Below are positions 1 to 6,622 of a stretch of DNA of 64,000 bases, piece by piece. Location of the stretch: assembly GCA_002356215.1 (NCBI GenBank), contig AP017959.1, forward strand, positions 2,620,195 to 2,684,194, in the 5' to 3' direction. Position 1 is the first letter of the stretch. The number at the start of each line of letters is the position of its first letter. The translations under genes were made by a program, and so were the position numbers. The notes under the pieces are model-generated. The model saw only the letters and a program-made list of their open reading frames with translations, had not been told where the DNA came from and made no database searches. This DNA is from [Synechococcus] sp. NIES-970. Lineage in GTDB: Bacteria > Cyanobacteriota > Cyanobacteriia > Cyanobacteriales > MRBY01.

Positions 1-2051
1 GACGTCTGGGGATCAAAAAGGATTTCATACCAAGGCTGTTCCCGCCGCTCCATGTCCACTTGAATTGCCTGCTCTGCGGTGTGGTTTTGGGGGGCGAGGG
101 AACTGATAAATCCCCCTTGGAGGGTTTCTTTAGCCCCTGGCAATAGGGGCAATTTTTCTATATCAAGTTCGGCACATAGACCTGAGGGCTGGAGCATCTC
201 CAATAGGTGACCCGCCAGCCCAAAGCCCGTCACATCGGTGCAGGCGGTGGCCCTATGTTGCCGGAGGATTGCCGCTGCCCGTTGATTGGATTGTTGCATT
301 GAGGCGATCGCCCCATCGATCCAGCTGCCCTGGGCTTTTCCTTGCATTTCTGCGGCAAAAAGCGTACCTGTACCCAAAGATTTTGTCAAAATAAAGACTT
401 GATCTGCTTGAAGCGCTGTTTTGCGCCAAATTGCATCTTTTTGCAATAGACCGTTGCAGGTGAGCCCTAAGCCAAGGCGATCGCCCTCATTGGTATGGCC
501 ACCAATCAGAGCAATTTTTTGGACGTTCAAAACAGCTAATACCCCGGCCAAAAGTTGTGCCAAAAGACCCTGTTGTACCGCTGCTTTTCCGTGGGGGAGT
601 GTTGCCAAAACCAAGACACTATGGGGGGTTGCCCCCATGGCGTAGAGGTCACTAAGGCAGTGGTGAGTAACGATTTGCCCGAGTAAAAAAGGATCATTCA
701 GTAGGCTCGGAAAATAATCCACCGTTTGCACCAAAAGCTGATCCGGGGGGAGCTGGAGCACCGCCGCATCATCGGGGGCATCAAGGCCGAGGAGAACATC
801 TGGATGCTTGGGTACGCTCAAGCTGCCCAGACTGCTGCTCAAAACACTTTTGCCCACTTTCGCTCCGCAGCCGGCACAATACATTTTCGGCGTTGCCCCC
901 ATTGGGGAGCCCATTGGCTTTAGCGGTGTCAAGTCTTGAAATTGGGCCATAAATTGCCGGTCAATGTGATCTTTCCAACGCCAGAGCAGAGGCGATCGCC
1001 AACTCAATTTTCCCCGGGTAGCAAAGGCTTGCTGATCTCCAGTCCCAATCAGTGCCAGGTAGCGTTTTTGGGGTCTATGACAAATAAGGGTTTTTCCCTT
1101 GAGGGTACGTTGCAGATTTTCAAAGAGGGGCTTGCCTTGGCGCACCGCAAAGACGCCTGCCTTTGGCCGGGGATGGTTTGCGATGGTGGCAATATCTCCG
1201 GCGGCAAACACAAAAGGATGGGAGGGCGATCGCAAGGTTGGATCTACCACCACAAAGCCCTGGTCATCGGTTTGTAGACCACTTGCCTGCAGCCAGGTTG
1301 GTGCTGAGGCTTGGGTGACCCAAATGACTTTGCCCCTGAGTTCTAAGCCCGCGGCGCATCGCAATCCTGTCGGCGTCACGGCGGTGACCGTTTCCTGGAG
1401 ATGCACATGAATGCCCCGTTTTTGTAAGAGCCGCATTGCCTGGCGACTGACCTGGGGATTTTGGTTGGTTTCCATCAACCGAGAACCCCGGTGAACTAGA
1501 TGCAAAGTGAGGGAGGCGGGATTTGTTAACCGTTGGCTGAGGGCATGGTGAATATTGAAGGCCAGTTCTGTACCGCCAGCGCCACCACCGACAATGATGA
1601 TGTCTTGGGTTTGATCCGGGTGCTCCTTGGCGGTTTTCAGAATTTGCTGCCAGGCGTTGAGAAATTGGGGCACGGGCTTGGCAGGAATGGCATATTCCGC
1701 AACGCCAGGGATAGTTGCGATACTGGGGGTACTGCCAATGTCTAGGGAAAGGTAATCGAAACGTACAGGAGGGCGCTGTTGGCAATGGATGAGTTTTTGG
1801 TTTAAATCGAGGGCGATCGCCCGATCTTTGAGAAAATCTGCCCGGGCAAAAGTAGCTAAACGGCGCAGATCAATGTGGGTTTCAGCATAATCATAAAAAC
1901 CCGCCACATAGCCCGGTAACATTCCGGAATAGGGAGTATCGCTAACGTCACTGATCAAGGTGAGGCGAGCCTCCGGAAGGGGATTCATTCCCCACATTTT
2001 TAAGGCGATCGCATGGCTGTGACCACCTCCCACAAAAACAACATCGGTCAT
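1..2051 (-). CDS. selD: Selenide, water dikinase (SelD) fused to an N-terminal NADH-dehydrogenase-like flavoprotein domain; C-terminus cut by window edge
   Basis: The frame starts at the ATG complementary to 2049-2051 and stays open for 683 codons to the window edge. The N-terminal half is a pyridine-nucleotide-disulphide-oxidoreductase domain with GGGHSH near residue 8 and a second nucleotide-binding motif, GGGAGG, further on. The second half is SelD, which makes selenophosphate from selenide and ATP. Its active-site loop reads CAGCGAK at about residues 392-398, so the catalytic position is Cys395, not selenocysteine, and Lys398 is kept. The last visible residues, LFDPQT, are the start of the conserved SelD DPQTSGG motif, so perhaps 60-90 residues are missing. 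Fusions of this kind are known in cyanobacteria; the flavoprotein half may supply reducing power, which is inference. It is transcribed divergently from the sensor kinase at 2333. Confidence 0.9.
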   Translation of the reverse strand, partial: MTDVVFVGGGHSHAIALKMWGMNPLPEARLTLISDVSDTPYSGMLPGYVAGFYDYAETHIDLRRLATFARADFLKDRAIALDLNQKLIHCQQRPPVRFDYLSLDIGSTPSIATIPGVAEYAIPAKPVPQFLNAWQQILKTAKEHPDQTQDIIIVGGGAGGTELAFNIHHALSQRLTNPASLTLHLVHRGSRLMETNQNPQVSRQAMRLLQKRGIHVHLQETVTAVTPTGLRCAAGLELRGKVIWVTQASAPTWLQASGLQTDDQGFVVVDPTLRSPSHPFVFAAGDIATIANHPRPKAGVFAVRQGKPLFENLQRTLKGKTLICHRPQKRYLALIGTGDQQAFATRGKLSWRSPLLWRWKDHIDRQFMAQFQDLTPLKPMGSPMGATPKMYCAGCGAKVGKSVLSSSLGSLSVPKHPDVLLGLDAPDDAAVLQLPPDQLLVQTVDYFPSLLNDPFLLGQIVTHHCLSDLYAMGATPHSVLVLATLPHGKAAVQQGLLAQLLAGVLAVLNVQKIALIGGHTNEGDRLGLGLTCNGLLQKDAIWRKTALQADQVFILTKSLGTGTLFAAEMQGKAQGSWIDGAIASMQQSNQRAAAILRQHRATACTDVTGFGLAGHLLEMLQPSGLCAELDIEKLPLLPGAKETLQGGFISSLAPQNHTAEQAIQVDMERREQPWYEILFDPQT

Positions 2052-2217: not shown

Positions 2218-2233
2218 TGTGACATCGCTCACA
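2218..2233. promoter_or_regulatory. CRP/SyCRP1-type palindrome in the selD / sensor-kinase divergent promoter
   Basis: The sequence is TGTGA, six bases (CATCGC), TCACA. Both half-sites match the consensus for cAMP receptor proteins exactly. It lies 100-115 bases before the sensor-kinase ATG at 2333 and about 170 bases from the selD start. It also resembles a degenerate NtcA site (GTG-N8-CAC), but the CRP match is better. Binding is inferred only. Confidence 0.6.
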
Positions 2234-2332
2234 ACGCCAGTTTCTGGGTGAAATATCCTGAATTTAACACCCCTTATTGTCTGGTGTGCGCCCAGATGAA
2301 ATATTTTCCCGCCGTTGTTCGCCCTAAACCCC

Positions 2333-4936
2333 ATGTCCATTTCCCCTAACCTGTCGTTGGCCATCATTCGCGATCCCCTTGTGGTTGAGGTGAATTGTCC
2401 CCTGGTAGAGGCGATCGCCCAAATGCAGGCAGTCCAAGTCAGTTGTGAGCTCGGGGCGACGGCTGTGGCCAAAATTGAAGCGGCGGGTCGGGCCAGTTGT
2501 GTCCTGGTGGTCGAACGGGGTCAATTGGTGGGTATTTTGACAGACCGACACATTTTACGCCTGAGTTTTGAACCAGGCTGGGCGGAAACTTTGACTGTGG
2601 CGGCGGTGATGCAGTCCCCGGTGAGTACTCTCCAAGAGGATTGCTTGACGAACTTTGGGGCGATCGCCTGGGTTTTTCAAGAGACAAATATGCGCCACCT
2701 CCCGATCCTGGATCGTCAGGGTAAACTCATGGGCCTCTTAACCCAGGAGGGACTCCTCCATGGAGCCGAACCCACCGATCTGTTGCGCATGCGCTCCGTC
2801 GCTGAGGTGATGACGACCCAGGTGAGTACAGTTCTGGCGACGACCCCCCTGGCCGAAGTGATCCAATGCCTAACCGAACGGCAGGTTGGCTCAGTGGTCG
2901 TTACCGAGGCGACCGAAGCAACTGTCCCGGTGGTGCCTATTGGCCTGATTACCGAACGAGATCTTGTGCAGTGCCGTGCCCTCAACCTTGATCCAGAGCT
3001 TTACCAAGCCAGGGAGGTAATGAACCCACTCCCATTTTTTGCGCGGCCCAGAGATTCGCTCTGGAGTATTCAACAGCTGATTGATCGCCACGGCACTCAT
3101 CAGGTGGTGGTGGTAGACGACCACCAAAATTTATGCGGCATTATCACTGCTACGGATCTCATTCGAGCGGTGAATCCCCTAGAGCTATACCGATGGGCAG
3201 AAACTTTGCAGCAGCGGGTCACAAACCTCGAAGCAGCGGTTACCAGCCGGACCCAAGAACTACAACGGGTCAGTCATCTCCAACAACGCATTCTCGACAG
3301 CACGCACTTTGCGATTATTTCTATCGATCCAACGGGCCTCATTCAAACCTTCAATCGAGGCGCTGCCGCGATGTTAGGGTATGACCCAGAAGAAATTGTC
3401 GGCAAACAAACGCCACTTTTATTCCATGACCCAGCAGAGGTGGCGGCGATCGCCGAAGAATTGAGTCAAACTCTCCAGCGCCCTGTGAGCGCCACCATTG
3501 AGGTTTTCCAGATCCTCTGTATTAAAGAAGGGGAGCAGGATCGGGAGTGGACCTATATCACCCAGGCTGGCGATCGTAAAACCGTACGTTTATCCCTTGC
3601 CCCCCTCCAAGACGCAGACGGCCAGATCCTCGGAATTGCGGGCATTGCCCAAGATATGACCCAACGCAAAACCTACGAAGACCAACTCCAGGCCACAAAC
3701 CTCGCCCTGGCCAGGGCCACCCGTCTCAAGGATGAATTTCTCGCCAACATGAGTCATGAGCTGCGGACGCCCCTGAATGCGATCCTTGGCATGGCCGAAG
3801 CTCTCAAAGAAGAAGTGTATGGCCCCCTCCAAGAACGTCAATATCGGTCCGTTCAGACCATTGAAGCCAGTGGCCATCACCTTTTAGCGTTGATTAACGA
3901 CATCCTCGATCTAGCAAAAATTGAAGCCGATCGCCTCGAATTTCACTGCGAAGCCACGGCGATCGCCGATCTCTGTGAATCCAGCCTTGTCTTTGTACGT
4001 CACCAGGCCCAGGAAAAACAAATTCGACTCCACACCGATATTTCCGCCTATCTCCCCAAGCTGTTCATCGATGAACGTCGCATCCGTCAAGTGTTGATCA
4101 ACTTGCTCAGTAACGCGATCAAATTCACTCCTCCCCAGGGAACCGTTAGCCTCGAAGTGAGTCTTAAAGCCATCCCCTCCGAAGCAACCGATGCCCTACC
4201 TCGATACGAGCTAGATTTTCGGGTGCGCGATACGGGCATCGGCATTACCCCAGATAATTTAACGCGTCTGTTCCAGCCTTTCGTCCAAGTCGACAGCGAC
4301 CTCAATCGCCAATACAGCGGCACGGGTTTGGGCTTAGCACTTGTGAAAAAATTAGTCGAACTCCACGGGGGAACCGTTCAAGTCACCAGTCAACTGGGAG
4401 TGGGTAGTTGTTTTTCTTTTCGTTTGCCCTGTCATAACCTCCTGAATAATCCCCAGTGGAGCCTTGAACTGAATACTGAGTTGCCGCCAGATAAGCCCCA
4501 TCCAACGGCGGCAAACTCCCTAGATCTAGCCGTGGTGCCACCTGATCTACAAGGCTGCCGCGTGCTCTTAACAGAGGATAATGAAGCAAACATTCTCACA
4601 ACGGCACGCTATCTGACGGCCAGGGGCTGCCAGGTGATTATTGCTCGCAATGGCCAGGAAGCTATAGATTTACTCCTCGTCGAGCGACCCGATATTATCT
4701 TAATGGATGTGCAAATGCCTGTTTTAGACGGCCTTACGGCTATCCAACGCATCAGAAAATTAGGCGATCGCCAGCTGGCCCAGACCCCAATCATTGCCGT
4801 AACCGCCCTTGTTATGCCTGGGGATGCCGAAAAATGTCTGGCTGCTGGGGCCGATAACTACCTAGCCAAACCCATGAGGCTCAAACAATTAACCGCCTTA
4901 ATCCAAGAAACCCTCGCCCTACAAGAGCCGCTATGA
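2333..4936 (+). CDS. Hybrid sensor histidine kinase: CBS domains, PAS, HisKA/HATPase, receiver
   Basis: An 867-residue soluble sensor with no evident membrane segment. Order: four CBS-like units in roughly the first 290 residues (repeated G-I-L/I-T-x-R-D/H ends, e.g. GILTDRHILRL and GLITERDLVQ); a short coiled linker; a PAS domain ending in a PAC-like segment (residues ~315-450); HisKA with SHELRTPLNA (phosphoacceptor about His475); HATPase with NLLSNAIKFT, DTGIGI and GTGLGLALV; and a C-terminal receiver with phosphoacceptor about Asp792 in LMDVQMP. CBS domains often bind adenine nucleotides, so energy-charge sensing is a reasonable inference. ATG 2333 is preferred over the in-frame TTG at 2315. 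The stop overlaps the next gene's start by 4 bases (ATGA), implying translational coupling. Confidence 0.9.
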   Translation: MSISPNLSLAIIRDPLVVEVNCPLVEAIAQMQAVQVSCELGATAVAKIEAAGRASCVLVVERGQLVGILTDRHILRLSFEPGWAETLTVAAVMQSPVSTLQEDCLTNFGAIAWVFQETNMRHLPILDRQGKLMGLLTQEGLLHGAEPTDLLRMRSVAEVMTTQVSTVLATTPLAEVIQCLTERQVGSVVVTEATEATVPVVPIGLITERDLVQCRALNLDPELYQAREVMNPLPFFARPRDSLWSIQQLIDRHGTHQVVVVDDHQNLCGIITATDLIRAVNPLELYRWAETLQQRVTNLEAAVTSRTQELQRVSHLQQRILDSTHFAIISIDPTGLIQTFNRGAAAMLGYDPEEIVGKQTPLLFHDPAEVAAIAEELSQTLQRPVSATIEVFQILCIKEGEQDREWTYITQAGDRKTVRLSLAPLQDADGQILGIAGIAQDMTQRKTYEDQLQATNLALARATRLKDEFLANMSHELRTPLNAILGMAEALKEEVYGPLQERQYRSVQTIEASGHHLLALINDILDLAKIEADRLEFHCEATAIADLCESSLVFVRHQAQEKQIRLHTDISAYLPKLFIDERRIRQVLINLLSNAIKFTPPQGTVSLEVSLKAIPSEATDALPRYELDFRVRDTGIGITPDNLTRLFQPFVQVDSDLNRQYSGTGLGLALVKKLVELHGGTVQVTSQLGVGSCFSFRLPCHNLLNNPQWSLELNTELPPDKPHPTAANSLDLAVVPPDLQGCRVLLTEDNEANILTTARYLTARGCQVIIARNGQEAIDLLLVERPDIILMDVQMPVLDGLTAIQRIRKLGDRQLAQTPIIAVTALVMPGDAEKCLAAGADNYLAKPMRLKQLTALIQETLALQEPL

Positions 4937-6087
4937 CCATGCCAATCATCCTAGTTGTCGATGATGAACCCCGCAATTTTGATGTGGTAGAAGCTCTTCT
5001 TGGGTATCAGACCTATGAATTACAATATGCATCTAGTGGCAAAGAGGCTCTCGAAAATCTGGCGATGTTTCCCATTGCCCTGATTTTGCTCGATGTGATG
5101 ATGCCGACCATGGATGGCATTGAAGTGTGCACCCAGATCAAAGCCAACAAAGACTGGGCGATGATCCCGATTATTATGGTGACTGCCCTCACTAGCAAAT
5201 ATGACCTGGCCCGTTGTCTAGAAGCCGGGGCCGATGACTTTATCAGTAAACCCGTCAGTGCCCTAGAGCTCAAAGCGCGGGTCCACTCGCTGCTGCGCAT
5301 TAAAACCCAGTATGACCAAATTAGTGAACTGGCCCAGCTCCAACGCAATACTATTGATCTGCTCCGGCAGAACCTCGAAGCGCTCCAAGGCAATTTGGCA
5401 GCCAGCTTTCCCCACGAGCTCAACACGCCTTTAAATGGCATCATTGGTGGACTGAGCCTCCTCTTAGAAGAACACACCACCATGGATGCGGAAGAACGGC
5501 AGGTGTTTCTCCAGATGACCTATGAATCAGCCCTGCGACTCCACAAAACCACACAAAAGTTCCTGACTTACACTAAGCTGGAGCTATATCTCCAAAACCC
5601 AGAGCGTGTTCCTCTCCATGGCCTTGATGGTCCGAAGCCGAGCGCCATGGCCAGCATTATGAAAGATATTGCTGACAGCGAAAAACGAGCAAAAGATTTG
5701 CAGCTCGTCCTGGGCGAAGCCCAAGGAGTTATCTCCTATGCAGACTTCACCACACTGATCACCGAGTTGTTAGAAAATGCCTTTAAATTTTCGTCGGCTG
5801 GCAGTCCGATCCAAGTAGTGAGTCAGGCGATCGCCGATCAATTTGTAATGACTGTCACAAATCAGGGTCGGAGTATAACCCCCGAAGAAGTGCAAAAAGT
5901 GGGGGCTTTTCAGCAGTTTAATCGTCAACTGTATGAGCGGCAGGGTTTAGGTTTAGGCCTTAAAATTGTGATGAGCATCATCACCAAGTACGACGGTGCA
6001 CTAAACATTAGCACGCCTCCAGAGGGGGGCACCTGCATTGAGTTTCGTCTGCCACTGCTACAAGAAGCCTCAGAAAGTCACCCCTAG
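4933..6087 (+). CDS. Receiver-histidine kinase (response regulator with C-terminal kinase domain)
   Basis: A 384-residue protein. The N-terminal CheY-like receiver has the acidic pair Asp10/Asp11, phosphoacceptor Asp54 in LILLDVMMP and the conserved Lys near 106 (SKP). A short helical linker leads to a HisKA-like segment, FPHELNTPLNG (His161), and a HATPase with an N-box (ELLENAFKFS) and a GLGLGLKIV box. The canonical DxGxG box is weak: the matching place reads NQGRSI. Kinase activity is therefore likely but not certain. The gene overlaps the preceding hybrid kinase by 4 bases, so the two probably form one phosphorelay. An alternative ATG lies two codons inside (4939). Confidence 0.88.
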   Translation: MTMPIILVVDDEPRNFDVVEALLGYQTYELQYASSGKEALENLAMFPIALILLDVMMPTMDGIEVCTQIKANKDWAMIPIIMVTALTSKYDLARCLEAGADDFISKPVSALELKARVHSLLRIKTQYDQISELAQLQRNTIDLLRQNLEALQGNLAASFPHELNTPLNGIIGGLSLLLEEHTTMDAEERQVFLQMTYESALRLHKTTQKFLTYTKLELYLQNPERVPLHGLDGPKPSAMASIMKDIADSEKRAKDLQLVLGEAQGVISYADFTTLITELLENAFKFSSAGSPIQVVSQAIADQFVMTVTNQGRSITPEEVQKVGAFQQFNRQLYERQGLGLGLKIVMSIITKYDGALNISTPPEGGTCIEFRLPLLQEASESHP

Positions 6088-6166: not shown

Positions 6167-6622
6167 ATGACCAACTCTCCCTTTACGTCAACTGAGCGCA
6201 TGGCATCTTTAAAAGTAGCGGTGACAGGGAGTGTATCGGCGGGGCTGGTCGGCTTCATAATCCTCTTGGGCCATCGTATTCTTGATCTGGGTTTAGATGG
6301 TATTGCCCTGAGCTTTTTGGGGGGAATTGCCAGCCTGACATTGATTTATGATGCGTTTATCGCGGCAATCTCTGGGGCTCTATTTGCCCTGACTTACCGT
6401 TATGCGATTCGCATGGATAAAAACCCCCAACTGAATGGGGGGGTGGTCTTGGCTTTCACCCTCGTGCGGGGTCTTGCCCAGGTGGATGCAGGCTCAGCGA
6501 TCGCCCAAAATTTTTGGCCCTTTTTGTCCGCCTGTGGTGAGAGTTTTGGCATTTTTGGCCTCACCGCTTTGGTGCTGAATTTTGCGATCGCCCGGGGTTG
6601 GCTTACGGCTTTTGGAGAATAG
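6167..6622 (+). CDS. Conserved hypothetical membrane protein
   Basis: A 151-residue protein not recognised beyond a general resemblance to small cyanobacterial membrane proteins. Hydrophobic stretches lie at about residues 20-40, 45-75 and 115-145, giving three or four membrane segments, with short charged loops such as RYAIRMDKNP. No catalytic motif is visible. It follows the two-component pair by 79 bases on the same strand and could be read through from it, but nothing ties it to signalling. Confidence 0.65.
   Translation: MTNSPFTSTERMASLKVAVTGSVSAGLVGFIILLGHRILDLGLDGIALSFLGGIASLTLIYDAFIAAISGALFALTYRYAIRMDKNPQLNGGVVLAFTLVRGLAQVDAGSAIAQNFWPFLSACGESFGIFGLTALVLNFAIARGWLTAFGE

What the first reader, a model, noticed from the sequence alone, without database searches (positions are those of the whole stretch)
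2218..2233. Perfect CRP palindrome between selD and a CBS-containing hybrid kinase
TGTGA-N6-TCACA with both half-sites exact lies about 100 bases before the kinase ATG. Linking cAMP signalling to a kinase whose CBS domains may sense adenine nucleotides would be a notable energy-sensing circuit.
Basis: partly seen in the sequence, partly recalled or inferred. Interest (0 to 1): 0.5.

Follow-up and report, generated by a model that had tools for sequence, protein, structure and literature searches.

The report
Unconserved CRP-like site before kinase operon
A perfect binding-site word for the cAMP-sensing regulator CRP does sit in front of a two-gene signalling operon in this cyanobacterium, but it is missing from the one relative found with the same operon, so it is at best a local add-on and may be chance.

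Summary
In detail: TGTGACATCGCTCACA lies at 2218-2233, 99 bases before the kinase ATG (2333), in a 281-bp divergent gap. The genome is a Picosynechococcus. It encodes a CRP orthologue whose recognition helix is identical in six of six genus genomes and one class III cyclase gene. TATCCT, a possible -10, begins 20 bp after the site, close to class II activator spacing. The kinase gene overlaps a second kinase gene by 4 bases, so the pair is probably one operon.

Against it: the genome has 3 perfect sites with about 1.9 expected; 2 are intergenic with 0.28 expected. The one syntenic orthologous operon found (G002) lacks the site, and PCC 7117 lacks the operon. None of 29 usable upstream regions of homologous kinases, G002 included, has a site with one mismatch or fewer. 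Conserved sites can be found in this genus: an hli-like promoter has one at -90 in three of six genomes, not including this one.

Verdict: a plausible, lineage-specific CRP operator candidate, about as likely to be chance. CRP control of cyanobacterial kinases was already predicted in 2009 (PMC2633013). The energy-sensing circuit rests on adjacency.

The parts
2218..2233 (.). Perfect TGTGA-N6-TCACA palindrome, candidate CRP operator
   Evidence: Direct sequence; pattern search
2254..2259 (+). TATCCT, candidate -10 element (TAN3T) beginning 20 bp after the palindrome
   Evidence: Sequence; spacing computed. The general sigma-70 scan found no promoter in 2040-2345, so this rests on the CRP-type TAN3T rule alone
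2333..4936 (+). Hybrid histidine kinase: CBS x4, PAS, HisKA, HATPase_c, receiver (867 aa from the ATG)
4933..6087 (+). Receiver-HisKA-HATPase_c kinase, overlapping the first by 4 bases; probably the same operon
   Evidence: same gene order in G002
3..2051 (-). NDH-2-like / SelD fusion gene, divergent; it runs past the left edge of the window
   Evidence: Pyr_redox_2, AIRS, AIRS_C; open frame 732 aa in the whole genome

Best explanation
The palindrome is an operator of the CRP type that belongs to this lineage only. The CRP orthologue, when charged with cAMP, would bind it at about -40.5 relative to a start site set by TATCCT (2254-2259). There it would act as a class II activator of the two-gene kinase operon 2333-6087, adjusting the dose of an accessory phosphorelay. 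Shown: the site, the gene layout, the presence of CRP and cyclase genes, and the lack of conservation. Inferred: binding, the start site, activation, co-transcription and any physiological meaning.
For: Perfect word in a divergent intergenic gap. Two intergenic perfect copies in the genome with 0.28 expected, P about 0.03. The word with up to one mismatch exceeds three same-composition controls, 74 against 46, 31 and 18. CRP orthologue present, recognition helix identical in six of six genus genomes; one class III cyclase gene. TAN3T 20 bp downstream, near the ~22 bp described for most identified CRP-activated genes of two cyanobacteria (passage of PMC2633013). CRP sites at an hli-like promoter differ between clades of this genus although the helix does not, so private sites can occur.
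Against: Absent from G002, the one syntenic orthologous operon found (best match in 400 bases has 3 mismatches). 0 of 29 usable homologue upstream regions have a site with one mismatch or fewer. Perfect copies genome-wide are near expectation, 3 against 1.93. Near-sites are not more intergenic than everted controls, 17 of 67 against 14 of 45. TAN3T at a gap of 19-23 is found at 3 of 28 strand-ends of control sites, so the spacing alone is weak. No sigma-70-like promoter found by the scan. Reviewed work also describes SyCRP1 as a repressor (passage of PMC13249358), so activation is only one option.
Confidence: 0.42

Rival explanations
1. Chance word: the palindrome has no regulatory role, and the kinase operon is expressed from a promoter that does not use CRP.
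For: Genome-wide number of perfect copies near expectation, 3 against 1.93. The everted control word also has an intergenic perfect copy. No site in G002's gap. No excess in intergenic DNA over the everted control.
Against: Two perfect intergenic copies with 0.28 expected; TAN3T at a fitting distance on the kinase side; the word with up to one mismatch exceeds three controls genome-wide.
Confidence: 0.42
2. A real operator, but with another user or target: another CRP-family protein such as NtcA (the site contains GTG-N8-CAC, akin to the recalled NtcA consensus GTA-N8-TAC), or CRP acting on the divergent selD fusion gene, for instance as a repressor.
For: NtcA-like and a second CRP-like protein are encoded. 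The site is 166 bases from the selD start. Reviewed SyCRP1 work includes repression (passage of PMC13249358).
Against: The site departs from the recalled NtcA consensus at both inner positions. The second CRP-like protein has a different recognition helix, without RETVTR. No upstream region of selD in the other five genus genomes is known to carry the site: those gaps, read, hold no TGTGA-N6-TCACA by eye, and the perfect sites fall elsewhere.
Confidence: 0.12
3. RNA-level element: the inverted repeat forms a hairpin or terminator in a transcript rather than a protein site.
For: A terminator-like match on the minus strand, 2239-2220, with a T-rich tail.
Against: Folding energies on either strand are no better than shuffles: z -0.47 and -0.13. 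The stem lies upstream of selD, where no transcript to be ended is known.
Confidence: 0.04

Closest known systems
SyCRP1 (sll1371) candidate operators of Synechocystis PCC 6803, e.g. slr1667-slr1668 (TGTGATCTGGGTCACA, -245) and slr0442 (TGTGATCCAGATCACA, -189) (passage of PMC2633013)
   Same: Same TGTGA-N6-TCACA word, upstream of a transcription unit, CRP orthologue present
   Different: Nearer to the start codon (centre about -107.5 from the ATG), different target, no binding data, and no conservation seen
Predicted CRP-regulated kinases and two-component genes in 12 cyanobacterial genomes (PMC2633013 section 4.4, read)
   Same: Same kind of prediction: CRP word upstream of signalling genes; 'dozens' of such genes were predicted there
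   Different: The paper's main text does not mention 7002 (0 occurrences); its supplementary tables could not be read
CRP-type site at -90 of an hli-like gene in G001, G004 and G005
   Same: Same genus, CRP with the same recognition helix, same word
   Different: Kept in position in three species; the kinase site was seen in one genome only

Membership tests
cAMP-CRP (SyCRP1-type) operator | TGTGA-N6-TCACA word | tested here: met
   0 mismatches at 2218-2233
cAMP-CRP (SyCRP1-type) operator | CRP with DNA-contact residues and a cyclase in the same genome | tested here: met
   CRP with RETVTR helix, identical in six of six genus genomes; class III cyclase gene. Cyclase substrate not tested
cAMP-CRP (SyCRP1-type) operator | TAN3T about 22 bp downstream (class II layout) | tested here: met
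   TATCCT after 20 bp; a gap of 19-23 is also met at 3 of 28 control strand-ends
cAMP-CRP (SyCRP1-type) operator | Conservation upstream of orthologues | tested here: not met
   0 of 29 usable homologue regions, including the one syntenic one in G002. Not strictly defining, since sites turn over; it lowers the claim
cAMP-CRP (SyCRP1-type) operator | cAMP-dependent binding and regulation | not testable with these tools
   Needs gel shift, ChIP or mutants
CBS-domain hybrid histidine kinase | CBS repeats, HisKA, HATPase_c and receiver in one chain | tested here: met
   Pfam: CBS (4 stretches), PAS, HisKA, HATPase_c, Response_reg, all above cut-off. Relatives of the CBS part are common: 162 of 388 genomes of the order at E <= 1e-45
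Adenine-nucleotide-sensing CBS (Bateman) module | Ribose-contact motif G-h-x-T-x-x-D in each CBS (motif recalled) | tested here: inconclusive
   By eye: GLITERD and GIITATD keep it, GILTDRH and GLLTQEG do not. Solved sequence relatives are assorted CBS proteins (names only); no ligand evidence

The most novel reading that the evidence does not exclude
This Picosynechococcus lineage has recently wired an accessory CBS/PAS phosphorelay into the CRP regulon. Cellular cAMP (carbon and light status) would set the dose of a kinase whose second pair of CBS domains reads adenine nucleotides, while a sister clade uses a CRP with the same recognition helix on an hli-like gene instead.
Probability: 0.12. 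Interest if true: 0.45.

Novelty: new member of a known kind. Interest (0 to 1): 0.2.

Why it matters
If bound, it adds one target to the CRP regulon of Picosynechococcus and shows how quickly CRP targets turn over between species that share an identical CRP recognition helix. If not, it is a caution: a perfect textbook palindrome in the right place is still roughly an even bet in a 3.1-Mb genome.

Tried and rejected
A first named-genome search with the CBS part of the kinase alone found no relative. It was followed by a search with an alignment of six SelD fusions, which found 10 loci; one coincides in position and identity with G003 and names it PCC 7117.

Apparent shared sites at the neighbours of L168/L090 and L139/L089 were rejected. 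L168 and L090 lie inside a small ORF with a CDGSH-like motif whose codons make the word, and the L139/L089 sites are not on the same side of the shared gene. L168 was therefore removed from the intergenic count (18 of 67 became 17 of 67). The 1 of 36 strand-end figure still includes L168.

An RNA-hairpin reading was set low on folding z-scores. A sigma-70 promoter scan of 2040-2345 found none. In the 300 bases before the matched start of crp no site with one mismatch or fewer was found in any of six genomes (best 2 mismatches, G003). In G001, G004 and G005 the match starts at residue 17-18 of the query, so those 300 bases include a little coding DNA.

Rows dropped or missing: 4 test sites and 1 control site in the second copy of a repeat of about 20 kb; 3 of 74 test sites not printed in the list; L062 (truncated flank, so its 'upstream' was wrong), leaving 29 of 30 homologue regions. 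Those 30 are the best-scoring homologues that were fetched as loci (G001, G002 and 28 others), not every match.

Papers: passages, outline and sections 13 and 20 of PMC2633013, supplementary tables not seen; passages of PMC13249358; all others search listings only. A search for 'Picosynechococcus' with 'CRP' found 0 papers. One for CBS domain, histidine kinase, cyanobacteri and cAMP found 12 papers, 11 listed, none on this point from title and start of abstract.

Full report
The site. TGTGACATCGCTCACA is at 2218-2233, exact in both half-sites. It lies in a 281-bp divergent gap between an NDH-2-like/SelD fusion gene (minus strand, start 2051) and a hybrid kinase (ATG 2333). The kinase has four CBS stretches, PAS, HisKA, HATPase_c and a receiver. 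A second kinase (receiver-HisKA-HATPase_c) overlaps the first by 4 bases, so the two are probably one operon. The genome belongs to Picosynechococcus: the same-genus genome G003 coincides in position and identity with PCC 7117.

Chance. The genome has 3 perfect copies of the word and a dinucleotide model built on the window predicts 1.93. Two of the 3 are intergenic by a rough codon-usage gene caller, where 0.28 are expected, P about 0.03. The everted control word has 2 perfect copies, one of them intergenic. With one mismatch allowed the word occurs 74 times, against 46 for the everted word, 31 for the reversed word and 18 for AGTGT-N6-ACACT. Against the everted word P is about 0.013. That excess is not intergenic: 17 of 67 classified test sites against 14 of 45 controls. 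So the word is mildly over-represented, and the statistical case for any one copy is weak.

Trans-acting parts. Six of six genus genomes encode an orthologue of the CRP (72-86% identity to that of G000) and a second, diverged CRP-like protein. In the CRP the stretch PHRELSSLSGLARETVTRVLTKLEKK is the same in all six. The genome has one class III cyclase gene, with FHA-like and GAF-like N-terminal parts judged by eye.

Promoter geometry. TATCCT at 2254-2259 begins 20 bp after the site, which would centre the site at about -40.5. Xu and Su state that most identified CRP-activated genes in two cyanobacteria carry TAN3T about 22 bp downstream (PMC2633013, passage). As a control, TAN3T at a gap of 19-23 occurs at 3 of 28 strand-ends of everted intergenic sites. 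Among the 36 strand-ends of the test sites listed as intergenic it occurs once, here (one of those sites, L168, was later found to be coding). The geometry fits but is not strong evidence, and the general promoter scan found nothing.

Conservation. Of six genus genomes, G000 and G002 have this kinase operon beside selD; the other four have different neighbours there. G002 has both kinases in the same order, with an extra stretch of several hundred residues (GAF- and PAS-like by eye) in the first, and the same downstream neighbours. Its gap has no TGTGA-N6-TCACA; the best match in the 400 bases before its kinase has 3 mismatches. In the pairwise alignment the site faces GATAACATCGGTTAGG, though that alignment is weak. 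In PCC 7117 (G003) selD faces the orthologue of ORF 6167-6622 directly, without the kinases. Among 29 homologue upstream regions that could be used (G002 and 28 more distant), 0 have a site with one mismatch or fewer and 3 have two mismatches. Shuffles predict about 0.4 regions at one mismatch or fewer among the 31 scanned, own included.

Positive control. The same comparison does find a kept CRP-type site elsewhere in the genus. Upstream of an Hli-like gene (name from recalled sequence features) in G001, G004 and G005 the word stands at -90 with 0, 0 and 1 mismatch. In G000, G002 and G003 the best match within 300 bases of the orthologous gene has 3 mismatches. Perfect sites are also more numerous in G001, G004 and G005 (7, 7, 9; reversed-word control 4, 1, 3) than in G000, G002 and G003 (3, 1, 0; control 1, 1, 0), although those genomes are larger. 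Targets of a CRP with an unchanged recognition helix thus seem to turn over between clades. A site private to one genome could therefore still be real.

Kinase ligand. By eye, CBS3 and CBS4 keep the ribose-contact aspartate (GLITERD, GIITATD) while CBS1 and CBS2 do not (GILTDRH, GLLTQEG); the motif is recalled. Solved relatives by sequence are assorted CBS proteins. Adenine-nucleotide sensing is possible, not shown.

Verdict. A real, perfectly formed, probably bindable CRP word in a plausible promoter position, seen only in this genome among the kinase homologues examined. Functional use and chance are about equally likely. Kinases as CRP targets in cyanobacteria were predicted in 2009 (PMC2633013 section 4.4), so the finding is a candidate new member of a known kind.

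Noticed in passing
L237, L238, L239 (G001, G004, G005), about 90 bases before the hli-like ATG: A CRP-type palindrome with 0, 0 and 1 mismatch at the same distance from the gene in three species, absent from G000, G002 and G003; followed downstream by TGTAAT-type repeats that resemble the HLR1 element (recalled). A better-supported CRP target than the site in the finding.
   Followed up: partly
window 2333-6087: The two-kinase operon is accessory: present at this place in G000 and G002, absent from the place in the other four genus genomes; in G003 (PCC 7117) selD faces the 6167-6622 orthologue directly. The first kinase is 1326 aa in G002 against 867 aa here.
   Followed up: partly
G000:C1 about 863,000-894,000 (outside the window): Four near-CRP words and one everted word recur exactly 20,056 bases apart, which points to a duplicated stretch of about 20 kb, real or from assembly.
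   Followed up: no
L001, 1501-1516: The other perfect intergenic site of this genome lies between an FTR1-like permease gene (by eye) and a large ORF, another divergent gap.
   Followed up: no
L168, about 901-916, and L090: The codons of a CDGSH-like motif (Cys-Asp-Gly-Ser-His) spell a near-CRP site, TGTGATGGTAGTCATA: a trap for motif scans.
   Followed up: yes
L016 (G001): An IS1-like transposase frame (by eye) lies beside the CBS kinase homologue of G001, which is not next to selD.
   Followed up: no
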